Assembly: GCF_001029285.1 (NCBI RefSeq)
Contig: NZ_LDZY01000020.1
Location: forward strand, 1-58,612
Source of the DNA: Desulfosporosinus acididurans
GTDB lineage: Bacteria > Bacillota > Desulfitobacteriia > Desulfitobacteriales > Desulfitobacteriaceae
Reading direction: 5' to 3'
Length of the DNA: 58,612 bases
Shown here: one piece after another, positions 39,763 through 46,624 of the stretch
How positions within the stretch are numbered: position 1 is the first letter of the stretch
How the letters are laid out: every line of letters starts with the position of its first letter
Made by a program: the position numbers and the translations under genes
The notes under the pieces: model-generated
The model's input: the letters and a program-made list of their open reading frames with translations, nothing else
Databases searched by the model: none
Told to the model about the DNA's origin: nothing

Positions 39763-39799
39763 TAAGTAGGAATTTTACTGAGACTGACGAATAGATAAA

Positions 39800-40040
39800 G
39801 ATAAATAGACCCCCATGCCGCTGTCGCAGCACCAGCAGAGGATGAAAATGAGTCTAGGTCCCGGTGGGCCGGGCAGCTTCGCCAAACTCTGGGTAATACC
39901 TGAAGTGAACCGTGGCTACGCTATCCCACGCAAGCTTTGCAGTCCTTACCGCCTCTCCATGCGATGGGTTTCACTGCTGTTGGGCGAGTCTGCCCTACTT
40001 ACGGGTCTTTGGCATTTAAGAGTAGTCTTTTCAGGGTAGT
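39800..40040 (+). ncRNA. Structured GC-rich noncoding segment (HEARO/omega-RNA-like or leader RNA)
   Basis: A ~240-base GC-rich island in AT-rich surroundings with many short stems: CCCGG/CCGGG, GGC-AGCTTC-GCC, CGTGG/CCACG (around CTACGCTATC), GCAA/TTGC, CCAT/ATGG and GGGC/GCCC. The 74-codon frame inside it lacks a ribosome site and a protein-like composition. The tract ACCTGAAGTGAACCGTGG...CCCACGCAAGC recalls, from memory only, the HEARO RNAs that guide IscB nucleases, but no iscB gene is present. A leader RNA for the Mo-hydroxylase operon downstream is the alternative. Confidence 0.45.
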
Positions 40041-40080
40041 AAGTAGGAAAAAATGAATAGTTCTGCTTAAACTCATATAT

Positions 40081-40100
40081 CCTTGATAATCGGATCAAGG
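40081..40100 (+). other. Hairpin in the ndh-like operon leader
   Basis: CCTTGAT pairs perfectly with ATCAAGG across a 6-base loop, between the GC-rich segment and the terminator at 40112. Confidence 0.5.
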
Positions 40101-40111
40101 GTGTCTACGAG

Positions 40112-40176
40112 GCAACCGTAATTGCTTCTCTATGAGCCATGTTGGTTTATGGAGAAACAATTACGGTTGCATTTTT
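40112..40176 (+). terminator. Strong rho-independent terminator or attenuator before the ndh-like operon
   Basis: GCAACCGTAATTGCTTCTC pairs with GAGAAACAATTACGGTTGC (one mismatch), followed by ATTTTTG. It ends 44 bases before the next ATG, so it either isolates the operon from the RNA upstream or acts as a regulated attenuator. Confidence 0.8.
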
Positions 40177-40219
40177 GTGAACTATCTTTATGGGGCATTA
40201 AGCAAGGGAGGACAATGCC

Positions 40220-41062
40220 ATGAAGTATTATCAACCGCAAAGTGTCAATGAAGCCATAGAAATAGCATATTCATCTCAAGGGATATTTTTGGCCGGAGGA
40301 ACGGATCTGGTACTTCAGATGCAGAAACGAAAGATCCAACCCAAGGCGTTGATTGACCTTGGCAGAATTCCGGAACTTCACGAAATTAAGGAAACGAAAG
40401 AGTATATAGAAATTGGCAGCATGGCAACCTTCTCTGAAATGGGGAAAAGTAAACTAATTGCTGAGAAGGCATCATCTCTCTGGTTGGCTTGCCAGACTAT
40501 GGGTTCACCGCAGATTCGAAATCAAGCAACCATTGGCGGAAATCTTGGGAATTGTTCGCCGGCAGCCGATGGCTTGCCTCCTCTCTTAGCTTTGGGGACT
40601 GAGGCCGTTTTAATTTCCGGCGAAGGAGAAAAGCAGATGCCTCTTGCTGACTTATTAGGGCAGACGCCGTTACTTTCTCCAGGTACTCTGATTGTGGGAT
40701 TTAAAATACCTAAAATTCATCTTTTGAGTGGATTTGCCAAACTAGGCAGGCGTGAAGCCTTAGCCATTGCTCGTTTAAGTGTTGCTGTGGCCCTGGAACT
40801 TGATGGTTCAAAGGTTGGAAATGTTCGGGTCGCCTTAGGTGCCGTCGGCAGACGCGCTTTTCTTAGTGACTCGCTGGCTCACGTTTTAAGCCAGCGGGAG
40901 TTTAATGAATCATGGCTGGAATTGGGGATAAGTCAAATCCAAGGTGTTGTCCGCGCTGCTTTGGGGGACAGGGCTTCAGCTCCTTATAAACGGGTTGCTG
41001 TGGCCGGCGTTTTTCGCGAAGCTGTTGCTTCTTTGAGAAGGCAAGGAGGGTTGGATAAATGA
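40220..41062 (+). CDS. Mo-hydroxylase FAD subunit (NdhF/XdhB-like)
   Basis: A 280-residue FAD subunit with FLAGGTDLVLQMQ and GSPQIRNQATIGGNLGNCSPAADGL, the two FAD-binding loops, and a C-terminal CO_deh_flav_C domain. The size is close to NdhF of Eubacterium barkeri nicotinate dehydrogenase. It is the first gene of a tight four-gene operon; the next gene overlaps it by 4 bases (ATGA). ATG follows AAGGGAGGACAATGCC. Confidence 0.88.
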   Translation: MKYYQPQSVNEAIEIAYSSQGIFLAGGTDLVLQMQKRKIQPKALIDLGRIPELHEIKETKEYIEIGSMATFSEMGKSKLIAEKASSLWLACQTMGSPQIRNQATIGGNLGNCSPAADGLPPLLALGTEAVLISGEGEKQMPLADLLGQTPLLSPGTLIVGFKIPKIHLLSGFAKLGRREALAIARLSVAVALELDGSKVGNVRVALGAVGRRAFLSDSLAHVLSQREFNESWLELGISQIQGVVRAALGDRASAPYKRVAVAGVFREAVASLRRQGGLDK

Positions 41063-41523
41063 TGGTCATCGAATGTATCGTTAATGATAAAAAGTATGTC
41101 TTAGAAGTAGACCCGCAAGAACGATTGCTGGATGTGCTGCGCAATCATTTAGGCCTGCTGGGAACAAAGGAAGGATGCGGAGAAGGAGAATGCGGAGCCT
41201 GCACCGTGATTTTAGACGGGAAAACCGTCAACTCCTGTCTCGTTCTAGCGGGCCAAGCGCATAACTCTGTGATTACGACGATTGAAGGCGTCGGGAATCG
41301 TCAGAGTCCCCATCCTGTTCAAAAGGCTTTTGTAGAAGTTGGCGCCGTACAATGTGGTTTTTGTACTCCTGGGATGGTTCTCTCCGCGAAAAATTTACTG
41401 GATAAGAATCCTCATCCCAGCGATGAAGAAATTGGAGTTGCTTTATCCGGAAACCTCTGCCGCTGTACAGGTTATGATAAGATTCTGCGCGCTGTTAAGC
41501 TGGCTGCTGAGGAGGGAAAATAA
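41059..41523 (+). CDS. Mo-hydroxylase 2Fe-2S subunit (NdhS/XdhC-like)
   Basis: A 154-residue protein with both cluster motifs complete: GCGEGECGACTVILDG...C and QCGFCTPG...CRCTGYDKI. The length is standard for small subunits. It overlaps the FAD gene (ATGA) and the next gene (TAATG), so the operon is translationally coupled throughout. Confidence 0.92.
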   Translation: MMVIECIVNDKKYVLEVDPQERLLDVLRNHLGLLGTKEGCGEGECGACTVILDGKTVNSCLVLAGQAHNSVITTIEGVGNRQSPHPVQKAFVEVGAVQCGFCTPGMVLSAKNLLDKNPHPSDEEIGVALSGNLCRCTGYDKILRAVKLAAEEGK

Positions 41524-42788
41524 TGAAAACTGAAGTAGTAGGGTCTCGTGCATTGAGGGAAGATTCTTGGGGAAAGGTCTTTGGTCAGACGAAGTTTCCG
41601 GCAGATGTCAACCTTCCCAACCAAATTTACGGTGTTGTTGTACGCAGTCCTCATCCCCATGCTCGGATTCTGAACATTAACAGCGAAGAAGCAATGAAGC
41701 TTGAAGGTGTTGCAGTTGTCCTGACGGCTAACGATGTGCCCCATAATTCACATGGCGTTCTGTTCCGGGATCAGCCGGTTATCGCCGACTATGTACGCAT
41801 GGTAGGGGACCCGGTTGCCGTAGTGGGAGGCGAAACCATGGAGATCGCCCGTGAAGCAGCGGAGCGAATCAGGGTCGATTACGAAATTCTGCCGGCCATC
41901 TTTGATCCTGAAGAGGCCATGAAGCCGGAGGTTCCGCCTCTGCACCCGGAACTTCAGTCCACCAATGTTCTATACCATCTGCCTATTCGCCGGGGATCGA
42001 TGGAAGAAGGCTGGGCCAAAGCAGATGTTGTCGTCGAACAAGTCTATAAGACCCAGCATGTGGATCATGCTTTTTTACAACCTGAGGCTGTTCTTGCGTA
42101 TTTGGATGAACGTGGGCATATGGTGGTTCAGACCGCAACTCAATATGCCCACTATGATCGAGGTGAAATTGCTCATGCCCTCGGGTTTCGCTACAGCCAG
42201 GTGCAAGTGAAGACTTTGGCTGTCGGTGGTGCTTTCGGTGGACGAGAAGATATCTCTCTGCAGATTATCGCGGCCTTGCTGGCCTTGAAGACCCAGAGAC
42301 CTGTCAAAATGGAGAATACTCGGGAAGAATCGTTTTATTCACATAGTAAACGTCACCCTATGACTATGTATTACAAGACAGGGGCTGCCAAGGATGGAAA
42401 GCTCGTTGCTATGCAGGCTAAGATTATAGGTGATGCAGGCGCTTATTCCTCTTGGAGTATCAATGTTCTGCGCAAATCCGCCGTTCATGCCACAGGGCCC
42501 TATGAGATACCCAACGTCGAAATTGACAGTTTTGCAGTTTTTACGAATAATCCTTATACTGGAGCAATGCGGGGTTTCGGTGCGGCTCAAACGGTTCTGG
42601 CCTATGAGAGCCAAATGGATCTTTTAGCAAAGAAGTTGGGAATATCACCTTTAGAAATTCGTTTGCGCAATTGTTTCCAAGTGGGAAGCATCACGGCAAC
42701 GGGACAAGAGCTGACAAGCAGCGTTCCTTTAGACCAATGTTTAGCCAAGATAGCCCCATATTTCAGAAGGGAGGTGGAAACTCCATGA
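41523..42788 (+). CDS. Mo-hydroxylase large molybdopterin subunit, N-terminal half (NdhL-like)
   Basis: A 421-residue protein covering only the first half of a xanthine-dehydrogenase molybdopterin chain: the VGSRALREDSWGKVFGQTKF domain, GGAFGGREDIS and GAMRGFGAAQ loops, ending shortly after LRNCFQVGSITATGQEL. The other half is a separate gene that overlaps by 4 bases. Such a split is the hallmark of E. barkeri nicotinate dehydrogenase (NdhL about 425 residues), a labile-selenium enzyme. Given the context, the substrate may be a purine rather than nicotinate. Confidence 0.88.
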   Translation: MKTEVVGSRALREDSWGKVFGQTKFPADVNLPNQIYGVVVRSPHPHARILNINSEEAMKLEGVAVVLTANDVPHNSHGVLFRDQPVIADYVRMVGDPVAVVGGETMEIAREAAERIRVDYEILPAIFDPEEAMKPEVPPLHPELQSTNVLYHLPIRRGSMEEGWAKADVVVEQVYKTQHVDHAFLQPEAVLAYLDERGHMVVQTATQYAHYDRGEIAHALGFRYSQVQVKTLAVGGAFGGREDISLQIIAALLALKTQRPVKMENTREESFYSHSKRHPMTMYYKTGAAKDGKLVAMQAKIIGDAGAYSSWSINVLRKSAVHATGPYEIPNVEIDSFAVFTNNPYTGAMRGFGAAQTVLAYESQMDLLAKKLGISPLEIRLRNCFQVGSITATGQELTSSVPLDQCLAKIAPYFRREVETP

Positions 42789-43786
42789 AAAAACGGGGAA
42801 TAGGTTTAGGCTGTGCCTGGTATGGAACCGGGTATGGCAATGGCTTCCCGGATGTTTCGAGTGCTTTTGTGGAAATTCATGACGATGGTTCTGCTACGGT
42901 TCTTACCGGGGCTGTGGATGTCGGACAGGGCAGCAATTCGATTTTTGCCCAAATTGCTGCCGAAGAACTAGGGCTTAGGGCTGAAGATATTTGTGTCAAT
43001 ACGGCTGATACGGATGTAACTCCTGATTCGGGAACTTCTGCCGCAACCCGCCAAACTTACAATACCGGTAATGCAGTTCTCAAAGCAGTGCGACAAGCGA
43101 AATCTCGTTTGCTGATCTATGCTGCCCGTGAGTTTTCCTGCCCGACACCGGAGGGCATTGAGCTTAAGTCAGGATATATCGGAGTCAAGGGTGATCCATC
43201 CCGGCGGATGATTCTCGGCGATATGGTCTTTAAAGCTCGATTAAATGGGGAGCGCTTGATCAGCGCGGAAAGTTCCACAGCCCGTTCGACTCCCGTCGAT
43301 CTCACTACCGGACAAGGAGCGCCTTACTGGCCCTATTCCTTTGGCTGTCAGGCAGCAGAAGTAGAAGTGGATACGGAAACTGGCAAAGTGAAAGTTCTTA
43401 AAGTTATAGCCGTTCATGATGTAGGGAAGGCCTTAAATCCCACCCAAGTTGAGGGGCAAATAGCAGGCGGAGTGACGCAGGGTATCGGTTATGCCCTGCT
43501 GGAAGAACTTGAGTTACAAAAGGGAATGATTAAAAATCCGGCCTTTTCCAGTTATCTGATCCCCACAGCACTGGATGTGCCTAAAATAGAAGCATACTTT
43601 GTTGAAGAAGCTGAAGAGAGCGGCCCGTATGGCGCTAAGGGCCTCGGTGAACCAGCAATGCTGCCGACGGTTGCAGCAGTTATTAATGCTATTGATGATG
43701 CTGTAGGTGTAAGGATCACTTCGTTACCAGCGACGCCGGAAAAAATCCTTCAGGCCCTTGCAGAAAAAAAGGAGGAATTGGGGTAG
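42785..43786 (+). CDS. Mo-hydroxylase medium molybdopterin subunit, C-terminal half (NdhM-like)
   Basis: A 333-residue protein equal to the second half of a molybdopterin chain: GAVDVGQGSNSIFAQIAAEELG, DSGTSAATRQTYNTGNAV, VEGQIAGGVTQGIGYALLEE and GPYGAKGLGEPAM with the catalytic Glu. The start at ATG 42785 follows GGGAGGTGGAAACTCC and overlaps the large-subunit stop (ATGA); the longer frame from 42671 is only antecedent overlap. Size matches NdhM (about 330 residues). No fusion with the upstream frame is possible without a frameshift, and the dedicated ribosome site argues for a true split. Confidence 0.88.
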   Translation: MKKRGIGLGCAWYGTGYGNGFPDVSSAFVEIHDDGSATVLTGAVDVGQGSNSIFAQIAAEELGLRAEDICVNTADTDVTPDSGTSAATRQTYNTGNAVLKAVRQAKSRLLIYAAREFSCPTPEGIELKSGYIGVKGDPSRRMILGDMVFKARLNGERLISAESSTARSTPVDLTTGQGAPYWPYSFGCQAAEVEVDTETGKVKVLKVIAVHDVGKALNPTQVEGQIAGGVTQGIGYALLEELELQKGMIKNPAFSSYLIPTALDVPKIEAYFVEEAEESGPYGAKGLGEPAMLPTVAAVINAIDDAVGVRITSLPATPEKILQALAEKKEELG

Positions 43787-43871
43787 AATATAAAATAGCT
43801 GCACTTTATGTTTTGACATCAAAGTCAGTCAGAATGCGGCATTATATGTCGATTTTAGGGAGGGCTATTTC

Positions 43872-45233
43872 ATGTCAAGCGTGTCAAAAAATTCTTCGCC
43901 TCCAGCCGATCATGGCTTTCTCGATGGTTTTTTTCATTTATCGGAACTGGGTACCAATGTACGGACCGAAATTCTTGCCGGAGTGACAACCTTTGTCACT
44001 ATGGCCTATATTCTGTTTGTTAACCCTATTATTTTAAAAAATGCCGGTATGCCCATGGATGCAACCTTTGCGGCCACTGCAATCGCCGCGGCGGTAGCAA
44101 CCTTAATCATGGGCGTTTATGCCAATTATCCTATTGCTATGGCTCCCGGGATGGGGCTTAATGCATTTTTTACTTACTCCGTAGTCATTGGAATGAAACT
44201 TCCTTGGCAAACTGCTCTCGGAGCGGTCTTTATTTCCGGATTGATTTTCTTTCTCTTAACCGTCACTAAAGTCAGGGAATGGATTATGGAAGGAGTTCCC
44301 ACGGTTTTACGACTTTCTATCGGTGTCGGCATTGGCTTATTTATTGCCTTTATCGGCTTGCAAGATGGCGGACTTGTCACAGCCAATAAAGATACTTTGG
44401 TTCAATTAGGCAATATGAAGTCTCCTGGTGTCCTTGTGACCGTATTTGGGTTAATTGTGACCGGATTTTTTATGGCTAGACGGATTAAAGGCGGCTTATT
44501 ATATGGGATTTTTCTGACTACTATTTTTAGTATGTTTATGGGCGTTAAGCCGTTTCCTACAGGCCTAGAGAGTTTTGTTGTCTTCTCCAATCCTTTCCAT
44601 GCTGTAGCACCGATTATGGGCAAGCTTGATCTTAAAGGCGTATTTAATTATGGCTTAATCTCAATTCTTTTCGCTTTTACCTTTGTCGATTTATTTGACA
44701 ATATAGGGACCTTACTGGGGATTTCCCGTAAAGCCGGACTTTTGGATGAAAACGGCAATCTGCCAAGAGTCGGCAGAGCTTTGATGTCCGATTCGATAGG
44801 TACGATGTTTGGCTCTATTATGGGAACTCCAACAGTAACGTCCTATATTGAAAGTACGGCAGGCGTAGCTGAGGGCGGTAAAAGTGGTTTAACCGCAGTA
44901 ACCGTTGCAGTTCTTTTCGTTTTCTCCATTATCTTTGCTCCACTTGTTGGCTTGATCCCAAGTCAAGCAACAGCACCAGTTCTTATTCTTGTTGGTGTCT
45001 TGATGATGAGCGAAGTGGTTCATATCAATTTCGAAGATTTTACAGAGGCATTTCCTGCCTTTATCACCATCATCATGATGCCCTTAACTTATTCTATTGC
45101 TCAAGGCTTGGCATTTGGATTTATGTCTTATACCATTATTAAATTGATTACCGGAAGGCATAAAGAGAATAATGCTGTTACCTATATTTTAACTGTCTTG
45201 TTTATCGTTCACTTTATCCTTGGCGGCGGTTAA
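43872..45233 (+). CDS. AzgA/PbuG-type purine permease (NCS2 superfamily)
   Basis: A 453-residue membrane protein with about 12-13 hydrophobic segments. VTTFVTMAYILFVNPIIL, MAPGMGLNAFFTYSVV, FVDLFDNIGTLLG and GTPTVTSYIESTAGVAEGGKSGLTAV are signatures of the adenine/guanine/hypoxanthine carriers, a different branch from the permease at 13554. Thus the island imports both oxidised and amino/oxo purines. ATG follows TTAGGGAGGGCTATTTC. Confidence 0.9.
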   Translation: MSSVSKNSSPPADHGFLDGFFHLSELGTNVRTEILAGVTTFVTMAYILFVNPIILKNAGMPMDATFAATAIAAAVATLIMGVYANYPIAMAPGMGLNAFFTYSVVIGMKLPWQTALGAVFISGLIFFLLTVTKVREWIMEGVPTVLRLSIGVGIGLFIAFIGLQDGGLVTANKDTLVQLGNMKSPGVLVTVFGLIVTGFFMARRIKGGLLYGIFLTTIFSMFMGVKPFPTGLESFVVFSNPFHAVAPIMGKLDLKGVFNYGLISILFAFTFVDLFDNIGTLLGISRKAGLLDENGNLPRVGRALMSDSIGTMFGSIMGTPTVTSYIESTAGVAEGGKSGLTAVTVAVLFVFSIIFAPLVGLIPSQATAPVLILVGVLMMSEVVHINFEDFTEAFPAFITIIMMPLTYSIAQGLAFGFMSYTIIKLITGRHKENNAVTYILTVLFIVHFILGGG

Positions 45234-45292
45234 GAAGTTATGGGAAATGTGGAGAGGCGTGTTTAAAACTTAGGAAAAAGGGGGAATTTTAA

Positions 45293-46624
45293 ATGCGTAT
45301 TTTGTTTAAAAACGCGACTATTGTTACTATGAATGCTCAGCGTGATGTTATTAAGGGCGATCTGTTGGTGGATGGCTCAAGGATTGCAGCGGTTGGGGAG
45401 GTTAAGGAGCCTTCTGCGGATCAAGTGCTTGATCTAAATGGTGACTTGCTCATTCCTGGTTTGATTCAAACTCATATTCATCTCTGCCAGACCTTGTTTC
45501 GGGGACAGGCCGATGATTTGGAACTTTTGGATTGGCTTAAACTTAGAATTTGGCCCTTGGAAGGCGGACATGATCCAGAATCGATCTACGATTCCGCCTT
45601 GCTGGGAATTGGAGAACTGTTTCTAGGCGGAACGACAACAATAGTCGATATGGAAACAGTACATCATACAGAGCATGCTTTCGAAGCTATACTGTCCAGC
45701 GGTTTGAGAGCTCTGGCCGGGAAAGTCATGATGGATGATCCCAGCGGGGATGTCCCTCTTTCCTTGCAGGAAACGACAGAGGCTTCTTTACAAGAAAGTG
45801 TGGATTTATTTGAGAAATTTAATGGACAAGGAAACGGACGCCTGGAAGTTGCCTTTACACCGCGCTTTGTCGTTTCTTGTACCGATACCCTATTAAAAGA
45901 AGTTTCACGCTTGGCACGGGAAAAGAAGGCCTTCGTACATACCCATGCTTCTGAAAACAGGGGCGAAATTCAAGTCGTGGAAAGTACTCGAGGAATGCGC
46001 AATGTTGTCTATTTAGATAAGGTCGGCTTAACTGGCCCGAAACTTATTCTTGCTCACTGCATTTGGCTGGATGAGACTGAAAAAGATATCCTCATTCAGA
46101 GCAAAACGCGAATTTCACATTGTCCGTCATCAAATCTGAAATTGGCTTCTGGAATAGCTGCCATTCCAGAGCTCTTAGAGCGAGGCGCTGAAGTCTCCCT
46201 CAGTTGCGATGGAGCCCCCTGCAGCAATAATCTGGATGGATTTCGGGAAATGCGCCACGCAGCCTTAATGCAAAAACCCTTACATGGTCCAACTGCAATG
46301 CCGGCTCAAAAAGTATTTGAACTGGCAACTATTGCGGGAGCTCGTGCTCTGGGACGCGAAGGAGATCTTGGCAGTCTGGAGGTCGGGAAAAAAGCTGATT
46401 TGGCAGTTGTCAGCCTTCAGGGACTGCATACCTGGCCCAATCAACATGTGGACGTATACTCTCAGTTAGTTTATCAGGCTTATCCCTCAGATGTTCGTCT
46501 CACGATGGTGGATGGGCAAATTGTGATGAAAGACCGTCAGTTGCTGACAATCGACGTTCCTGAACTTAAAAAAAGCGCAACTCAAAGCTTAAATCGAGTC
46601 ATGAAACGAGTAGGAATGATTTGA
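45293..46624 (+). CDS. Amidohydrolase, purine/pterin deaminase-like (ATZ/TRZ family)
   Basis: A 443-residue amidohydrolase. Metal ligands: IQTHIHLCQTLFRG (HxH), FVHTHASEN, LILAHCIWLD and LSCDGAPCSNNLDG (Asp). The family includes guanine deaminase-like, 8-oxoguanine and 5'-deoxyadenosine deaminases. Being behind the AzgA-type permease, it probably deaminates an aminopurine, guanine being the simplest guess. It is a distant relative of SsnA at 16253, with only the ligand motifs in common. ATG follows AAAAGGGGGAATTTTAA. Confidence 0.82.
   Translation: MRILFKNATIVTMNAQRDVIKGDLLVDGSRIAAVGEVKEPSADQVLDLNGDLLIPGLIQTHIHLCQTLFRGQADDLELLDWLKLRIWPLEGGHDPESIYDSALLGIGELFLGGTTTIVDMETVHHTEHAFEAILSSGLRALAGKVMMDDPSGDVPLSLQETTEASLQESVDLFEKFNGQGNGRLEVAFTPRFVVSCTDTLLKEVSRLAREKKAFVHTHASENRGEIQVVESTRGMRNVVYLDKVGLTGPKLILAHCIWLDETEKDILIQSKTRISHCPSSNLKLASGIAAIPELLERGAEVSLSCDGAPCSNNLDGFREMRHAALMQKPLHGPTAMPAQKVFELATIAGARALGREGDLGSLEVGKKADLAVVSLQGLHTWPNQHVDVYSQLVYQAYPSDVRLTMVDGQIVMKDRQLLTIDVPELKKSATQSLNRVMKRVGMI

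What the first reader, a model, noticed from the sequence alone, without database searches (positions are those of the whole stretch)
39790..40176. GC-rich structured noncoding element before the split-hydroxylase operon: orphan HEARO/omega-RNA or a new leader RNA
A compact, GC-rich block with at least six nested or adjacent stems sits in AT-rich DNA and is followed by a perfect small hairpin and a strong terminator just before the operon. No credible protein is encoded. Parts recall HEARO (IscB guide RNA) scaffolds, in which case the bases just upstream (about 39780-39800) would be the guide and the iscB gene has been lost; otherwise it could be a riboswitch-like leader, for example for molybdenum cofactor or a purine.
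Basis: inference. Interest (0 to 1): 0.68.

Follow-up and report, generated by a model that had tools for sequence, protein, structure and literature searches.

The report
Mini-IS110 element beside a purine riboswitch
The stretch is two separate things side by side: a small non-coding element that has the ends of an RNA-guided transposon and carries a damaged copy of an undescribed folded RNA, and just behind it a purine-sensing RNA switch that probably turns on the genes for breaking down purines.

Summary
The GC-rich block is real, but it is two things and not HEARO. (1) 40053-40178 is a purine riboswitch (Rfam RF00167, 64 bits) with its terminator. The pocket is guanine-type (U51, C74), with a J3-1 change (A73U) in 22 of 22 genus orthologues; the terminator consumes the aptamer in 24 of 24 folds, which predicts an ON switch for the xanthine dehydrogenase operon. 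(2) 39809-40039 is an interspersed repeat, absent from all 21 orthologous leaders tested. It has both ends and the TAG core of a bridge-RNA IS110 family (autonomous member on contig C8 of the same genome) but no transposase: a mini-IS110. Its cargo is a truncated copy of a ~170-nt rod-shaped element. Intact copies covary strongly (30 of 41 pairs with two-sided changes), fold better on the minus strand in 40 of 42, gave no Rfam 15 match, and occur in 41 of 60 related genomes, 47 or more copies in two. The cargo shows no target guide of its own. The element lies between a conserved sigma-H-like promoter motif and the riboswitch. Mobilisation in trans and the RNA's function are inferred.

The parts
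39768..39792 (+). sigma-H-like promoter motif (AGGA, 16 nt, CGAAT) of the xdh leader
   Evidence: AGGA-N15-17-NGAAT upstream of 20 of 22 orthologous aptamers, 0.31 expected from shuffles; pattern chosen after reading the sequences; sigma-H consensus recalled
39806..39808 (+). left core (TAG) of the mini-IS110 insertion
   Evidence: the core precedes the left end in other copies and in autonomous elements
39809..39850 (+). left end (LE) of IS110 type
   Evidence: same block before IS110 transposases in Alicyclobacillus, in relatives and on own contig C8
39824..39987 (-). truncated copy of the rod-shaped structured RNA; the model match reaches into the left end
   Evidence: R1 match 64.3 bits, E 2.6e-13; best intact own-genome copy 185 bits
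40027..40039 (+). right end (RE) CTTTTCAGGGTAG with right core TAG at 40037-40039
   Evidence: autonomous element on C8 ends TTTTTCAGGGTAG; same ending in other copies; coordinates
39809..40039 (+). whole mini-IS110, 231 bp, no transposase
   Evidence: absent from 21 of 21 orthologous leaders; alignment with L165 and L164
40053..40152 (+). purine riboswitch aptamer (RF00167), guanine-type pocket, J3-1 UCU
   Evidence: 64.2 bits, gathering 37; J3-1 compared
40112..40178 (+). terminator of the riboswitch, 5' arm shared with aptamer P3, J3-1 and P1
   Evidence: fold; sequence
40220..46624 (+). purine-oxidation operon: FAD subunit 40220-41062, 2Fe-2S subunit 41059-41523, molybdenum-subunit frames 41523-43786, permease 43872-45233, amidohydrolase 45293-46624
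   Evidence: frames; Pfam for four of these proteins; the molybdenum-subunit frames are named by sequence likeness only

Best explanation
The block is two independent units. Unit 1 (39809-40039) is a non-autonomous mini-IS110: it keeps the left end, right end and TAG core that an IS110 recombinase with its bridge RNA recognises as donor, but carries no transposase. It most likely excised as a circle and inserted with the recombinase and bridge RNA of an autonomous relative acting in trans, at a TAG core in the xdh leader. Its cargo is a decayed copy of a dispersed, rod-shaped structured RNA encoded on the opposite strand. Unit 2 (40053-40178) is a purine riboswitch: without ligand the terminator forms at the expense of P1 and P3; when guanine or a close relative binds, the aptamer is held and the purine-oxidation operon is read. 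Shown: ends, core, absence in orthologues, guide-target match of the autonomous family, covariation, Rfam match, terminator/aptamer overlap. Inferred: movement in trans, transcription and function of the cargo RNA, ligand and ON logic.
For: RF00167 at 64.2 bits; J3-1 UCU in 22 of 22 genus orthologues; terminator pairs with at least 6 aptamer positions in 24 of 24 folds. IS110 ends beside transposases, transposase families confirmed by Pfam; element absent from 21 of 21 orthologous leaders (alignment); 40 of 156 cargo copies with both ends; own guide-target match in 15 autonomous elements 6.8 against 4.06 permuted, 0 of 5000; right-end/core/left-end junctions in tandem copies. Cargo covariation. 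Published assays moved a mini-IS in trans (PMC11187229, passages).
Against: 66 of 156 cargo copies show neither end and 25 only the left one, so cargo and ends are not always together. Which autonomous element moved the window copy is unknown: its left target GATAAATAG is not that of the C8 element. Only one filled/empty site pair was worked out in detail. The window cargo is broken and does not fold better than shuffles. No transcript, ligand or transposition data.
Confidence: 0.78

Rival explanations
1. The cargo is a REP-like repeat that IS110 elements favour as a target; the left-end blocks are scars of decayed IS110 insertions beside it, not the ends of one mini-element.
For: IS110 members aim at REPs (PMC1525189, passages); the C8 IS110 sits directly at the right end of a repeat copy; 66 of 156 cargo copies have neither end.
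Against: 40 of 156 copies have left and right ends on the expected sides (permissive right-end pattern); L031 has left and right ends only 16 nt apart without cargo; left end and cargo are absent together from 21 of 21 orthologous leaders.
Confidence: 0.15
2. The cargo acts as a DNA hairpin (for example a recombination or protein-binding site), not as an RNA.
For: Outer arms are self-complementary but differ between the three G076 copies looked at, which would suit a DNA hairpin; no transcript data.
Against: Minus strand folds more stably in 40 of 42; mismatches that read G-U on the minus strand outnumber those on the plus strand 69 to 24 when two weak pairs are left out, 74 to 59 with them.
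Confidence: 0.25
3. Orphan HEARO / omega-RNA of a lost iscB.
For: Multi-copy structured RNA linked to mobile-element ends, often without a gene.
Against: No HEARO match; 0 of 24 genomes with RF02033; no IscB in the own genome; the flanks of the cargo are IS110 ends, not a variable guide.
Confidence: 0.02
4. One new leader RNA spanning the whole block.
For: Both units probably lie in the same transcript, downstream of the promoter motif (inferred).
Against: The upstream part is absent from 21 of 21 orthologous leaders and repeated elsewhere, while the riboswitch is conserved.
Confidence: 0.02

Closest known systems
IS110-family elements with bridge RNA / seekRNA (IS621, ISEc21)
   Same: DEDD/Transposase_20 recombinase in the partner element, bridge-RNA leader that copies its own left target, core between right and left end, no terminal inverted repeats.
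   Different: The window element has no transposase and no guide of its own; it carries a structured cargo instead. The passages read do not describe natural mini-elements; 'MITE' is not in either text.
MITEs and other non-autonomous IS derivatives
   Same: Short, non-coding, multi-copy, with the ends of an autonomous partner.
   Different: No terminal inverted repeats, as expected for IS110; a conserved structured cargo between the ends.
Purine riboswitch RF00167, guanine class
   Same: Three-way junction, U51 and C74, loop-loop G and C positions.
   Different: A73U in J3-1, ON logic predicted, on a purine-oxidation operon; guanine riboswitches commonly reduce expression (PMC9295807).
Xanthine-II and guanine-II riboswitch variants
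   Same: Purine genes and ON logic.
   Different: The window RNA keeps U51 (xanthine-II has G51) and has no J2-3 insertion (PMC9295807).
HEARO / IscB omega-RNA
   Same: Multi-copy structured RNA linked to a mobile element.
   Different: No model match, no IscB in the own genome, no variable guide.

Membership tests
Purine riboswitch (RF00167) | Score above the curated threshold | tested here: met
   64.2 against 37 bits
Purine riboswitch (RF00167) | Three stems with conserved pocket (U51, C74) | tested here: met
   alignment; xpt numbering recalled; A24U, U48G and A73U differ
Purine riboswitch (RF00167) | Binds a purine | not testable with these tools
   needs in-line probing
Xanthine-II riboswitch | U51G with insertions in J2-3 and J3-1 | tested here: not met
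   U51 kept, no J2-3 insertion (alignment; features from PMC9295807)
Guanine-II riboswitch | One-nucleotide insertion in J2-3 | tested here: not met
   no insertion in J2-3 (feature from PMC9295807)
Non-autonomous IS110 element | Left and right ends of an autonomous IS110 with shared core | tested here: met
Non-autonomous IS110 element | Partner IS110 has a leader that copies its own left target | tested here: met
   6.8 against 4.06 permuted, 15 of 19 loci parsed; donor guide and right-target guide not tested statistically
Non-autonomous IS110 element | Orthologous site without the element | tested here: met
   0 of 21 leaders with it; alignment
Non-autonomous IS110 element | Moves with recombinase and bridge RNA in trans | not testable with these tools
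   needs a transposition assay
HEARO / omega-RNA | Covariance match to RF02033 | tested here: not met
HEARO / omega-RNA | Linked IscB gene or IscB in the genome | tested here: not met
   no RRXRR match in the own genome
REP / BIME repeat | Short palindrome (20-40 bp) with a RAYT transposase | tested here: inconclusive
   the element is 231 bp; RAYT was not searched (size from the PMC3733652 abstract in a listing)

The most novel reading that the evidence does not exclude
Desulfosporosinus, Desulfitobacterium, Paradesulfitobacterium and other Bacillota carry an undescribed class of rod-shaped RNA of about 170 nt with an almost invariant apical loop. It spreads by riding between the ends of bridge-RNA-guided IS110 elements, so that one RNA-guided mobile element moves another functional RNA in trans; the RNA, not the element, is what selection keeps, which is why its stems covary while its loop hardly changes.
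Probability: 0.35. Interest if true: 0.85.

Novelty: new variant of a known kind. Interest (0 to 1): 0.62.

Why it matters
Natural non-autonomous partners of bridge-RNA recombinases would show which donor ends and cargo such recombinases accept in the wild. The cargo is a strongly covarying structured element without an Rfam 15 match, found in 41 of 60 related genomes and in tens of copies in several, so its function is an open and directly testable question. The neighbouring riboswitch is a testable case of a guanine-type aptamer with a fixed J3-1 change and predicted ON logic on purine oxidation.

Tried and rejected
HEARO and other Rfam families: scans of the window and of 28 loci of the repeat family gave the purine riboswitch, a tRNA, two T-box leaders and two sub-threshold chance microRNA matches; RF02033 and RRXRR searches negative as told. 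Single-copy folding of the window block: no better than shuffles. A guide inside the cargo: not found (42 of 65 copies with a left end tested; 6.60 against 6.44, p 0.07, other strand p 0.34; 3.55 against 3.56, and 3.67 against 3.60 on the other strand, 2749 and 1599 of 5000 permutations as high). A cognate protein beside the cargo: among 107 distinct repeat loci the largest clusters of neighbouring frames were, by eye, transport and housekeeping proteins, repeated orthologous contexts, or frames through the second repeat; no annotation search was run on them. Plasmid and viral collections: an intact copy had no plasmid match at E up to 0.001; the core pattern hit 1 viral contig, not followed up. 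Promoter consensus scans found no plus-strand site. Literature: searches listed no paper on natural mini-IS110 elements with an RNA cargo or on this repeat, judged from titles and abstract openings only.

Selections made by hand: of 151 usable cargo windows, 106 were kept for few insertions or deletions and 58 were representatives below 86% identity. I dropped 15 for nested insertions or truncation, the window copy among them, and one more (L305), leaving 42 for alignment A2; 33 of these, the better alignable, made A3. In the G-U count two weak pairs were left out; they hold 35 G-T and 5 A-C cells on the plus strand and so speak against my strand reading, while the stability test over all 42 does not use them. 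The 156 cores come from the loci I had fetched and include some probable chance matches (for example L269, L308, L315, L318). The right-end pattern is permissive and takes the first match; in the window it stopped 14 nt short of the real end. In one search the pattern was chosen after reading the sequences, the window was given a longer upstream stretch, and two of the 20 hits (L168, L172) lie closer to the aptamer than the usual site.

Full report
What is there. Rfam finds one family in the stretch, the purine riboswitch RF00167 at 40053-40152 on the plus strand, 64.2 bits against a gathering score of 37. Its P2 is the 'perfect small hairpin' and its expression platform is the 'strong terminator' (stem 40112-40170, T run 40172-40176). 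The rest, 39809-40039, has no Rfam match and does not fold better than shuffles on either strand, but it is a repeat: 17 BLAST matches at E up to 1 in the same genome, the query itself and 5 weak ones (E above 0.05) included, and matches in 37 of 40 genomes, own included, of which 18 have E below 1e-5. The host genus is Desulfosporosinus, inferred because contigs of the unnamed relatives of the same genus have the lengths of named Desulfosporosinus records (for example 701,823 bp).

The riboswitch. RF00167 matches occur in 28 of 40 genomes, own included. I fetched 36 stretches holding such matches; with the window they gave 39 aptamers. Twenty-two of them, each from a different genome of the window's genus, lie upstream of purine-catabolism genes: 15 directly before the FAD subunit of the dehydrogenase, 4 before the amidohydrolase, 1 before the permease, 1 before a molybdenum-subunit frame and 1 at a contig end (names by sequence likeness, Pfam was run on window proteins only). 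These 22 have J3-1 UCU; of the other 17, 14 have ACU, 2 have GCU and 1 was not parsed. Numbering is that of the xpt RNA and is recalled. U51 and C74 are kept in the window, so a guanine-like specificity is predicted; A73U is a fixed change next to the pocket. In 24 of 24 folds (the 22 plus L180 and L182) the terminator's 3' arm pairs with P3, J3-1 or P1 of the aptamer; for the window the terminator form is -54.4 and the aptamer form -22.4 kcal/mol. Ligand binding would therefore block termination: an ON switch. Guanine riboswitches commonly reduce expression, whereas xanthine-II and guanine-II variants are described or predicted as ON switches (PMC9295807, outline and text parts 1-3 of 6 read). 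The window RNA does not have the changes that define those variants.

The upstream unit is a mini-IS110. A block of about 42 nt at its left edge (ACCCCCATGCCGC ... GATGAAAA) also occurs about 60 bp before an annotated IS110 transposase on an Alicyclobacillus plasmid (that copy has no room for a bridge-RNA leader) and, with a bridge-RNA-like leader in between, before IS110 transposases in several relatives. The own genome has one close member, on contig C8 (tnp 147679-148878, 62% identical to the Alicyclobacillus protein; DEDD_Tnp_IS110 and Transposase_20), with left end CCAGAGTAG|ACCCCCATG and right end TTTTTCAGGGTAG. The window unit has the same two ends, TAG|ACCCCCATG at 39806 and CTTTTCAGGGTAG ending at 40039, but no transposase. 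None of 21 orthologous leaders has a left end or a cargo core within 400 nt upstream of the aptamer, and in an alignment with L165 and L164 the flanks on both sides align while the unit does not. Tandem copies give the junction TTTTCAGAGTAG|ACC or close variants, right end, core, left end, as expected for insertion through an IS110 circle.

The partner family is guided. Of 19 loci given to the script, 15 autonomous elements had a left target and leader that could be parsed; their leaders repeat 4-8 nt of their own left target up to the core (mean 6.8, permuted 4.06, 0 of 5000 permutations as high). The shortest (L210, 4 nt) is included; several of the 15 are related. This fits the left-target guide of a bridge RNA (PMC11208160, passages). 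The mini-elements show no such match in their cargo (42 of 65 copies with a left end tested, also with p 0.07 and 0.34 by a looser measure). They would depend on a bridge RNA in trans; published assays moved a mini-IS in trans (PMC11187229, passages). Which element moved the window copy is unknown: its left target GATAAATAG is not that of the C8 element.

The cargo is an undescribed structured element, probably an RNA. Across 156 distinct cargo cores in the loci I had fetched, 65 have a recognisable left end, 40 have left and right ends, 25 only a right end and 66 neither, so the cargo is not confined to IS110 ends. Intact copies form a long rod with a nearly invariant apical loop, GGUUCAC-N-UCAGGUA-N-UACCC-N-GAGGUU on the minus strand. 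On 42 aligned copies 35 of 42 pairs have two-sided changes, with a covariation score of 0.472 against 0.143 shuffled and at most 0.121 when the partner is slid. On 33 minus-strand copies the figures are 30 of 41 pairs, 0.439, 0.166 and at most 0.096. The minus strand folds more stably in 40 of 42. A covariance model (R1) matches 41 of 60 genomes, own included, and 13 of 19 genera; at most 47 candidates per genome were scored, a limit that two genomes reach. In a draw of 299 genomes across the phylum it matches 7, three of them outside the window's order, with at most 9 candidates scored per genome. Three copies read in one of those (G076) keep the loop but have different, self-complementary outer arms. 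In the window genome R1 finds 11 copies at E up to 0.001; the window copy is a weak one (64.3 bits on the minus strand; the best has 185.2), because one arm is deleted. I saw no protein family that keeps company with the cargo (107 loci, frames within 1.3 kb).

Where it landed. Upstream of the aptamer, 20 of 22 genus orthologues have AGGA-N15-17-NGAAT, 0.31 expected (pattern chosen after reading the sequences), which resembles a sigma-H promoter (consensus recalled). In the window the motif is at 39768-39792, so the mini-element sits just downstream of the inferred start and upstream of the riboswitch, adding about 230 nt to the leader.

What remains open. Movement in trans, transcription of the cargo and its function are inferences. 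The association of cargo and ends could in part reflect IS110 elements aiming at the repeat (first rival), although the joint absence from the orthologues and the two-sided ends argue for a unit. The verdict for the finding: a riboswitch of a known class with a small twist, plus an unusual passenger on a known kind of RNA-guided element.

Noticed in passing
L184 and L185 (G007:C1:1957082-1957184, G015:C1:3811802-3811904): Purine-riboswitch relatives with G at position 51 and J3-1 GCU upstream of a frame that looks like a molybdenum hydroxylase large subunit; they resemble the xanthine-II variant.
   Followed up: partly
L087, L088, L091, L093, L101, L104, L108: A second repeat, also bounded by IS110-type ends, carries the apical loop GGTTCACATGCAGAAATACCCAGAGGTT on the opposite strand to the first cargo.
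   Followed up: partly
L031 around 1300-1360: Left and right IS110-type ends only about 16 nt apart, without cargo: a minimal element of roughly 70 bp.
   Followed up: no
L005, L092, L093, L101, L104: Smaller palindromic sequences are nested inside cargo copies, at the same places of the rod in different genomes.
   Followed up: no
L363, L370, L375 (G076) and L364-L366, L371, L376: Distant copies keep the apical loop but have long outer arms that differ from copy to copy; beside L376 lies a sequence like an IS110 left end.
   Followed up: no
L195 around 1060-1250 (own contig C8): A sister of the window mini-element, with another deletion in the cargo, sits directly before the autonomous IS110.
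   Followed up: partly
window 41523-43786: The molybdenum subunit is in two overlapping frames (41523-42788 and 42671-43786), which suggests a frameshift or a split subunit.
   Followed up: no
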